Below, piece by piece: positions 24,168 through 26,074 of a stretch of 36,870 bases of DNA (positions within the stretch are counted from its first letter, which is position 1; every line of letters starts with the position of its first letter). The translations under genes were made by a program, and so were the position numbers. The stretch is from Bdellovibrionales bacterium (GTDB lineage: Bacteria; Bdellovibrionota; Bdellovibrionia; Bdellovibrionales; UBA1609). Under the pieces are notes generated by a model that made no database searches, was not told where the DNA came from, and saw only the letters and a list, made by a program, of their open reading frames with translations. The DNA lies in NCBI GenBank assembly GCA_020628165.1, contig JAHDFM010000006.1, forward strand, positions 117,437 through 154,306. The letters run 5' to 3'.

Positions 24168-24386
24168 GCTGGAGATGTTTTGATCAACCAATAAAGACAG
24201 GTCCTTAGCTTTTATAACTTATATTCGAGAGCTTTCTTGTTTTTAATACACTTAAATAATTAGGCCCTAAGAACAGTTCATGGCTGAAAGAATACTCTTC
24301 AAGTTCAAATTTTATATAATGAAAAAAGGCATTTAAACACGCTCAGAGCCGAAGTATTGTTGCTTTGCGCAAAAGGGGAGTTTTGT

Positions 24387-24977
24387 ATGAAGTTATTATT
24401 AGCGATTCTCATCATGTTACCATTGAGTTCTCAAGCTTTGATTCTGTTAGAAAACAAATCTGGAAGGTACTCAACACGAACAAAAATTCCAAACTTCGAT
24501 CAGGCACAAAGAATGAAGCGACAAAGACGAATAGGTCTTGGGCTTTCAGCAGCTGGTGTGCACGGGCTCCTTGGTGGAAACTTGGAGTTAAATTTAAAAC
24601 CTGAGCTCAGCCTGATGGGTGGTTTTGGTTTGTCGAACTCATTCTATAGTTTTAACACCCAGATCAAAAGAAGCTTATATGGAAATGACATTACACCATA
24701 TATGGCTCTTGGCTACGCTCACTGGTCAAACAGTAGTGATGACCCAGTTGAAGACACCATTCCTAGTTTCCTCGGCAAAAAATTCCTGAGTGATAATGAA
24801 ATTTCATCGGGTGAATTTTCGGAAAACTTACTGTATGTCAGCCTTGGCTTACAGTTTTATCAACTGACTGGTGAGTGGATTGGCTTGAGTCTTTACGCAG
24901 AACTCATTGGTGTTATGGACATTGATGATACTCAGGTGGCGCCGACATTTTCTCTTGGTTCGACTTACTACTTCTGA
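24387..24977 (+). CDS. Small outer-membrane beta-barrel-like protein
   Basis: The start at ATG 24387 has AAAGGGGAG six bases upstream; a frame from 24357 is not supported. The 196-residue protein has a signal peptide (MKLLLAILIMLPLSSQA). Alternating-residue strands follow: RRIGLGLSAAGVHGLLGGNLE, LSLMGGFGLSNSFYSF, ITPYMALGYAHWS, NLLYVSLGLQFYQL, WIGLSLYAELIGV, FSLGSTYYF. It ends in a C-terminal Phe, the usual outer-membrane barrel signal for BAM. About eight strands fit an OmpA/OmpW-sized barrel. Function unknown. Confidence 0.7.
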   Translation: MKLLLAILIMLPLSSQALILLENKSGRYSTRTKIPNFDQAQRMKRQRRIGLGLSAAGVHGLLGGNLELNLKPELSLMGGFGLSNSFYSFNTQIKRSLYGNDITPYMALGYAHWSNSSDDPVEDTIPSFLGKKFLSDNEISSGEFSENLLYVSLGLQFYQLTGEWIGLSLYAELIGVMDIDDTQVAPTFSLGSTYYF

Positions 24978-24996
24978 TCTTTTCGCGTTTCTTGTG

Positions 24997-25173
24997 AGTG
25001 AATTCGGAGTTGGGTGCTGGCACCCAAAGTCGGCGAATGTTTCTTCCCGTTCTCAGGCAGCCATGGGCAGCAACGCTCGCCGGTGGCGAGCATCGCACCC
25101 ATGGAACTGCGTGCGGGATGCAAACATTCACCGTCTTTTAGTGTTCATTTTTTTTTTTTTTTTTGAATTCACT
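24997..25173. repeat. GC-rich nested inverted-repeat element
   Basis: Outer arms AGTGAATTC (24997-25005) and GAATTCACT (25165-25173) are perfect complements. Inside, 25026-25081 and 25085-25138 form an imperfect inverted repeat over about 55 bases. Matching blocks are CGG, GAATGTTT/AAACATTC (25035-25042, 25122-25129), CCCG/CGGG, GCAG/CTGC, CCATGGG/CCCATGG (25061-25067, 25098-25104) and GCTCGCC/GGCGAGC (25075-25081, 25085-25091) around GGT. A separate hairpin TTGGGTGC-TG-GCACCCAA sits at 25010-25027. A run of 17 T follows at 25148-25164. By my count 73 of 120 bases in 25011-25130 are G or C, against an AT-rich genome. It looks like a REP/MITE-type element or structured RNA. Confidence 0.7.
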
Positions 25174-25660
25174 TCAGTGCACTTTGGGGTTTTGATCTTA
25201 CCGTAGTTTTTGGCTTGGTGGGGTATTTGTGTTTTCGTTTTTGAACTTATTTTTCATTTTTTGCCCTTATTATGTATATGTGCTTTTTTTGATTTAAATT
25301 CTTTTAAATATTTTTGAACATTATAGGTTTGTTTATTTGTTTAGATATTTTGTTGAAACTATTTGGTTTGTTAGGTTTTCTTATTAGTTCGGAAATTATC
25401 AATTTTTGGGATTATCTATTTTTTGGTTGTGTTGGGTTAGATAGAAAACTTTTTGGCATGTATTGTTCTAAATTTAGATGGGCAAAACTTTCATTTATTT
25501 GATGAATCGAATTGGAGATACTCTAACTTATATTAAGGCCATACTTAGTTTAGATAGAACTGACTTTATTTTTTTCAATCAATTGATTAATAGTTGTTTT
25601 CTTTTTATGGGACTTCATCGGTACAGAGGGAATATGCTTTGGGTCTGGTGGTTTTTGGGT
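25174..25660. other. Non-coding, T/G-biased stretch
   Basis: About 490 bases between the GC-rich element and the histone-gene terminator. The plus strand is dominated by T and G with long T runs, and A and C are scarce, so base skew is strong. Short frames of 62-67 codons exist but lack ribosome-binding sites and have unusual Phe/Leu composition. I see no promoter or family match. Confidence 0.4.
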
Positions 25661-25693
25661 AAAAAAAACCCCTTATCGTGAAATAAGGGGTTT
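25661..25693 (-). terminator. Intrinsic terminator of the histone-like gene
   Basis: On the minus strand AAACCCCTTAT, a six-base loop, and ATAAGGGGTTT form a perfect 11-bp hairpin followed by a run of T (plus-strand A-run 25661-25668). It lies about 30 bp after the histone-like gene's stop. Confidence 0.9.
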
Positions 25694-25723: not shown

Positions 25724-26074
25724 TTATTTCTTTCTTTTTTTAGTAGCTTTACGCTTAGTTGTTTTTTTCTTAGCTTTCTTTTTAGTAGCTTTTTTCTTTG
25801 CAGCCTTCTTTTTAGTGGCTTTCTTCTTAGTAGCTTTCTTTTTAGCTTTTTTCTTAGTGGCTTTCTTTTTAGTCGCCTTCTTTTTTGTCTTGCGCTTAGT
25901 TGTCTTCTTTTTTGCTTTTTTTCTAGTCGCTTTTTTCTTTGTAGCTTTCTTTTTAGTTTTGCGCTTCGTAGTTTTCTTTTTAGCTTTTTTGCGAGTTACT
26001 TTTTTCTTCGTCGCTTTCTTTTTTGTTTTTCTTTTCGTGCTTTTTTTAGCAGCTTTTCTTTTTTTCTTTGCCAT
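25724..26074 (-). CDS. Lysine-rich histone H1-like DNA-binding protein
   Basis: The 116-residue protein is built almost only of Lys, Ala, Thr and Arg, with one Ser and one Val. This is the composition of bacterial H1-like tails (Hc1/Hc2, AlgP, PhaF-type KKATKK repeats). A 23-residue unit beginning KKKATKKK and ending KTTKRKT occurs twice in tandem at residues 18-40 and 41-63 with one change (Val/Ala). A third, more diverged unit follows. There is no globular domain, so it should bind and compact DNA by charge alone. AGGAGG lies six bases before the ATG. The gene has its own promoter and a strong terminator, which fits high, separate expression. Confidence 0.85.
   Translation of the reverse strand: MAKKKRKAAKKSTKRKTKKKATKKKVTRKKAKKKTTKRKTKKKATKKKATRKKAKKKTTKRKTKKKATKKKATKKKAKKKATKKKATKKKAAKKKATKKKAKKKTTKRKATKKRKK

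What the first reader, a model, noticed from the sequence alone, without database searches (positions are those of the whole stretch)
24997..25173. GC-rich, deeply nested inverted-repeat element in an AT-rich gap
Six arm blocks and outer arms complement each other around a GGT loop, over 177 bases, at about 61 percent GC in the core. Complementarity kept in blocks with changed connecting bases suggests compensatory or structural constraint, as in REP/BIME or MITE elements or a stable RNA. A T17 run sits inside the right outer arm. No transposase is near. It could be mobilised in trans, act as a convergent-gene terminator, or be a structured RNA.
Basis: seen in the sequence. Interest (0 to 1): 0.7.

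Follow-up and report, generated by a model that had tools for sequence, protein, structure and literature searches.

The report
Dispersed long-hairpin element with conserved cap
The 177-base palindrome is one of about 20 scattered copies of a mobile-element-like DNA hairpin family found across one class of Bdellovibrio relatives; its tip is conserved while its two arms differ from copy to copy yet almost always match each other, which makes it a good system for studying how long hairpins arise and are kept.

Summary
Window 24997-25173 folds far better than shuffles (DNA z -6.5, RNA z -5.7). It is not single copy: the genome holds about 20 dispersed relatives. A conserved ~64-nt cap (25050-25113) sits on complementary arms. 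All 44 pairs taken together covary strongly (28 pairs changed on both sides, 0/500 shuffles).

A cap model finds the family in 33 of 144 genomes of the class Bdellovibrionia and almost nowhere else in the phylum. In relatives the arms reach 129 bp, often perfect, with copy-specific sequence. Two sibling species keep the flanking genes here but lack the element, so it is best read as an insertion. One relative shows terminal inverted repeats plus 9-bp target duplications. In another, copies flank RAYT-type HUH transposase genes. Neither partner is universal.

Best reading: a non-autonomous mobile hairpin repeat, REP/MITE-like but matching neither definition, whose arms change in concert, probably through template switching. 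It favours gaps between convergent genes and may act as a terminator secondarily. No dedicated transposase and no transcript were shown for this genome.

The parts
24997..25173 (+). whole element as reported: outer arms, linkers, inner arms, cap
   Evidence: absent from the same locus in two sibling species
24997..25005 (+). left outer arm AGTGAATTC (copy-specific in this genome)
25165..25173 (+). right outer arm GAATTCACT
25010..25027 (+). left linker with a small hairpin TTGGGTGC/GCACCCAA
25026..25049 (+). left inner arm, variable between copies, complementary to 25114-25138
25114..25138 (+). right inner arm
25050..25113 (+). conserved cap: CTCRRACA-type motif (25052-25060), P2 stem (25061-25067/25098-25104), P3 stem-loop (25075-25081/25085-25091), GAACTS motif (25104-25109)
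25148..25164 (+). T17 run in the right linker; T6 or longer in 8 of 19 copies, A6 on the left in 0 of 19
24357..24977 (+). upstream gene, ORF without Pfam match; its stop codon lies 20 bp before the element
25724..26074 (-). convergent lysine-rich, histone H1-like ORF
25666..25693 (-). intrinsic terminator of the convergent gene; a like one is at the same place in a sibling species

Best explanation
It is one copy of a class-wide family of non-autonomous, mobile-element-like DNA hairpins in Bdellovibrionia. Shown: about 20 dispersed copies in this genome; a conserved cap on long copy-specific arms; absence from the same locus in two sibling species; enrichment between convergent genes; arms that change together. 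Inferred: the cap is what a mobilising protein recognises in trans; copies insert or survive mostly at gene 3' ends; the arms stay matched because template switching across the folded arms copies one arm onto the other; in this genome the hairpin plus T-rich right linker can also terminate transcription of the upstream gene. The mobilising enzyme is not known. One relative points to a cut-and-paste (DDE-type) transposase and another to a RAYT-type HUH transposase.
For: Dispersed copies. Covariation: 28 of 44 pairs changed on both sides, covariation score 0.492 against 0.144 shuffled, 0/500. Spread: 33/144 class genomes; 20 class genomes and 1 other among 369 phylum genomes at the stricter cutoff. 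Insertion: mdh, porin-like and histone-like gene order kept in two siblings, gap 128 and 224 bp against 747 bp here, no element. Mobility: 9-bp TSD, 56/63 matching bases against 35.6 shuffled, p=0.0005, in relative G027. RAYT linkage in G036: 5 of 8 genes of one Y1 clade have a whole or half element within about 250 bp, 0 of 4 other Y1 genes; one gene is flanked on both sides. Convergent gaps 27/62 against 71/313 background, p=0.0008. Concerted arms: both-sided over one-sided differences about 40 in G021 against 0.3-0.6 expected if sites were independent. Template switching is known to create and maintain perfect stems (PMC8794818).
Against: No TSD at a fixed offset in this genome. The RAYT clade of G036 is absent from G000, G003, G021, G027, G008, G016 and G018, and some element-bearing genomes gave no Y1 match at all (G004, G016, G018). 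No autonomous partner with the AACTGGCC ends was found in G027. The two closest G000 copies differ by four one-sided changes and no paired ones, so correction is not immediate and selection on pairing remains possible.
Confidence: 0.7

Rival explanations
1. A structured RNA (sRNA or 3'-UTR motif): the cap is a protein- or ligand-binding RNA and the arms are selected for pairing.
For: Strong covariation and conserved unpaired cap bases. In this genome mismatches are A.C 25 against G.T 1 apart from one invariant T.G, which would be wobble pairs on the minus strand.
Against: No Rfam family matches. No one-sided (wobble) intermediates on the plus strand. The A.C excess is not significant when other genomes are pooled (32:21, p=0.17). 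Copies sit in all gene orientations including divergent gaps. Perfect arms up to 129 bp exceed what most RNAs need.
Confidence: 0.2
2. A REPtron-type system: the elements are unusually long REPs moved as single strands by RAYT (TnpA-REP).
For: RAYT genes in G036 are flanked by elements; REPs also prefer 3' ends (PMC3733652); 10 of 11 element genomes against 17 of 29 others have Y1 genes.
Against: The G036 RAYT clade is absent from most element-rich genomes; no Y1 hit in G004, G016, G018; 9-bp TSDs in G027 are not expected from HUH Y1 enzymes; no GTAG or CGTC tag.
Confidence: 0.25
3. A MITE moved by a DDE transposase through terminal inverted repeats; the hairpin cap is cargo.
For: G027 copies have TIRs [GC]AAACTGGCC and 9-bp TSDs, with internally deleted versions.
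Against: TIRs and TSDs were found only in G027, with like ends in G036; in this genome the outer arms differ in every copy and no TSD shows.
Confidence: 0.3
4. A bidirectional transcription terminator that has been duplicated within the genome, without transposition.
For: Placement just after stop codons, enrichment between convergent genes and T-rich right linkers.
Against: The convergent gene keeps its own terminator; copies also lie in divergent and antisense contexts; class-wide conserved cap motifs are not needed for termination.
Confidence: 0.15

Closest known systems
REP / BIME / REPIN with RAYT (TnpA-REP)
   Same: Dispersed intergenic palindromes near 3' ends; in one relative they flank RAYT-type genes
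   Different: 150-200 bp rather than 20-40 bp, no GTAG/CGTC tag, copy-specific perfect arms, about 20 copies, no universal RAYT partner
TIR repeats of TIRtrons / TIRYT (Di Nocera 2013, PMC3733652)
   Same: Inverted repeats unrelated to REPs that flank tyrosine transposase genes and also occur alone
   Different: No GGGGWSAS motif seen; conserved cap with long variable arms was not described in the text read
MITEs
   Same: Non-autonomous, TIRs and 9-bp TSDs in relative G027
   Different: No shared TIR or TSD in this genome; conserved part is the centre, not the ends
Perfect hairpins kept by template switching (PMC8794818)
   Same: Concerted change of both arms
   Different: Here in a dispersed bacterial repeat family with a conserved cap

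Membership tests
REP | Dispersed intergenic palindrome in many copies | tested here: met
REP | 20-40 nt hairpin with GTAG or CGTC tag at its foot | tested here: not met
   177 bp element; no such tag at either end (by inspection)
REP | Cognate RAYT gene flanked by the element | tested here: inconclusive
   met in G036; that clade is absent from this genome; the Y1 gene of this genome has no element nearby
MITE | Shared terminal inverted repeats | tested here: inconclusive
   met in G027 and G036; outer arms are copy-specific in this genome
MITE | Target site duplication | tested here: inconclusive
   9 bp in G027, p=0.0005; none at fixed geometry in this genome
MITE | Autonomous partner with the same ends | tested here: not met
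   none seen among the flanks examined of 23 end sequences in G027; search limited to 1.5 kb flanks and to ORF inspection
Known structured RNA family (Rfam) | Match to a covariance model | tested here: not met
Structured RNA in general | Discrete transcript | not testable with these tools
   no RNA-seq available
Intrinsic terminator | Stable stem followed directly by a T tract | tested here: inconclusive
   T17 begins 10 nt after the inner stem; long stem not flagged by the scan; T6 runs in 8 of 19 copies
Retroelement / retron | Reverse transcriptase in the genome | tested here: not met
   no PF00078 match in G000, G003, G021, G036, G125

The most novel reading that the evidence does not exclude
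A new class of hairpin mobile element in which only the cap moves and the long arms are made afresh at each site by fold-back (snap-back) copying of the neighbouring DNA, giving unique perfect arms in every copy.
Probability: 0.15. Interest if true: 0.85.

Novelty: new variant of a known kind. Interest (0 to 1): 0.58.

Why it matters
It adds a class-wide, apparently undescribed small-repeat family with an unusual design: conserved centre, hypervariable but matching arms. It gives a natural data set of over 100 hairpins to test how long palindromes arise, are kept perfect and are tolerated in bacteria, and hints at two different transposase types having been linked to one hairpin family. It also warns that strong 'covariation' in an intergenic hairpin need not mean a functional RNA.

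Tried and rejected
Rfam match: none. Plasmid or phage origin: no match; none in IMG/VR with the cap pattern. Reverse transcriptase partner: absent from several element-rich genomes. RAYT as universal mobiliser: rejected by distribution. Minus-strand folding bias: striking in this genome but not general, so not used as a main argument. Arms as inverted copies of upstream coding ends: only a few overlaps, the clearest in L256, about 10 codons of a tatC-like gene; not enough to support snap-back. Orthologous element positions between genomes: none found among sampled copies. The AT-rich gap 25174-25660 is not itself repeated in the genome apart from a weak 53-bp hit. An integron attC site was considered from memory: conserved part is the tip rather than the base, and copies are scattered singly; not formally tested.

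Full report
Observation. The nested palindrome at 24997-25173 is real. It folds at z -5.7 as RNA (24975-25200) and z -6.5 as DNA (24997-25173), with 0 of 200 shuffles as good. The T17 run is in the right linker, not in the arm.

It is a repeat family. The window lies on contig C19 of a 3.19-Mb draft genome. A DNA search gave 14 copies at 72-87% identity, and a covariance model gave 20 strong ones. Aligned, the copies share a cap of about 64 nt with nearly invariant motifs (CTCRRACAG, GGGCAGC, GCTCGC, GCGAGC, GCACCC, GGAACT) on inner arms that vary in sequence. Of 44 consensus pairs, 28 show changes on both sides; the covariation score is 0.492 against 0.144 when shuffled, and partners slid by 1 to 3 columns give 0.08-0.13. 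The window copy scores lowest of the 19 best copies, so it is a diverged member.

Architecture. About half of the copies in this genome also have an outer inverted repeat, roughly 20 nt outside the inner arm, different in every copy. The right linker carries T6 or longer in 8 of 19 copies, whereas A6 on the left occurs in 0 of 19.

Relatives. A specific cap pattern found in the GTDB collection occurs only in Bdellovibrionota, and not in IMG/VR. A cap model hits 33 of 144 genomes of the class. At a stricter cutoff it hits 20 class genomes and one other among 369 of the phylum, the last a marginal hit. Every example inspected is a long hairpin; 23 have perfect arms of 40 bp or more, the longest 129 bp.

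Concerted arms. In G021 one subfamily has left arms only 52% identical between copies on average, while arms within all its copies are about 98% complementary (1420 of 1455 pairs). Between copies, paired positions that differ on both sides outnumber those that differ on one side by about 40 to 1 in G021 and by 1.6-6.8 to 1 in G000, where independence predicts 0.1-0.6. The closest G000 pair is an exception, with four one-sided changes. DNA template switching is known to create and maintain such stems (PMC8794818). Flipped central segments between G027 copies fit the same kind of event. Selection on pairing cannot be excluded.

Mobility. In two sibling species the flanking genes of this locus are conserved, but the gap is 128 or 224 bp instead of 747 bp and holds no element; loss in both siblings is possible but less simple. 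Sampled copies are not at the same positions in different genomes. In G027 copies are bounded by [GC]AAACTGGCC and 9-bp direct repeats, 56 of 63 bases matching against 35.6 expected. In G036, 5 of 8 genes of one Y1 transposase clade have a whole or half element within about 250 bp, one of them on both sides; 0 of 4 other Y1 genes do. That clade is missing from most element-rich genomes, and reverse transcriptases are missing from several. The general mobiliser is therefore unknown.

Placement. Of gaps with an element, 27 of 62 are convergent against 71 of 313 background gaps (p=0.0008). Copies also occur in tandem and divergent gaps.

Here. The element starts 20 bp after the stop codon of an upstream ORF. 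The convergent histone-like gene keeps its own terminator at 25666-25693. A terminator role for the upstream gene is plausible and untested.

Limits. ORF calls are mechanical. Genomes are mostly drafts, and elements often sit at contig ends. CM matches to the arms-heavy model R1 could include unrelated long hairpins, so spread is quoted from the cap model R2. R2 was built from members found earlier, and its E-values are rough. The minus-strand wobble excess in this genome (25 A.C to 1 G.T) is unexplained and not general. The literature library is partial, so 'undescribed' is only as good as that search.

Noticed in passing
L128, L169, L064: In three genomes of different genera a copy lies directly downstream of a flagellin gene, within or beside a flagellin cluster, although the copies belong to different subfamilies.
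   Followed up: no
G000:C48:48133-49253 (L152) and G000:C53:84404-85455 (L148): Two pairs of elements in inverted orientation about 0.8-0.9 kb apart; the C48 pair encloses AT-rich DNA without long ORFs.
   Followed up: partly
L284 (G003:C67:7600-7824): At the position matching this locus a sibling species carries a different hairpin between two copies of ATCACCCTAACATTCGCTTTGCTCATTACGG, possibly another repeat family.
   Followed up: no
window 25724-26074: Very lysine-rich histone H1-like repeat protein with many partial DNA matches elsewhere in sibling genomes, and no Pfam match.
   Followed up: no
A2 / G000 copies: Excess of A.C over G.T mismatches in the arms of this genome only, with one invariant T.G pair next to the cap.
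   Followed up: partly
G021 contigs (JAGRAG01): Many contigs of this draft end inside or beside an element, so long hairpins appear to break assembly.
   Followed up: no
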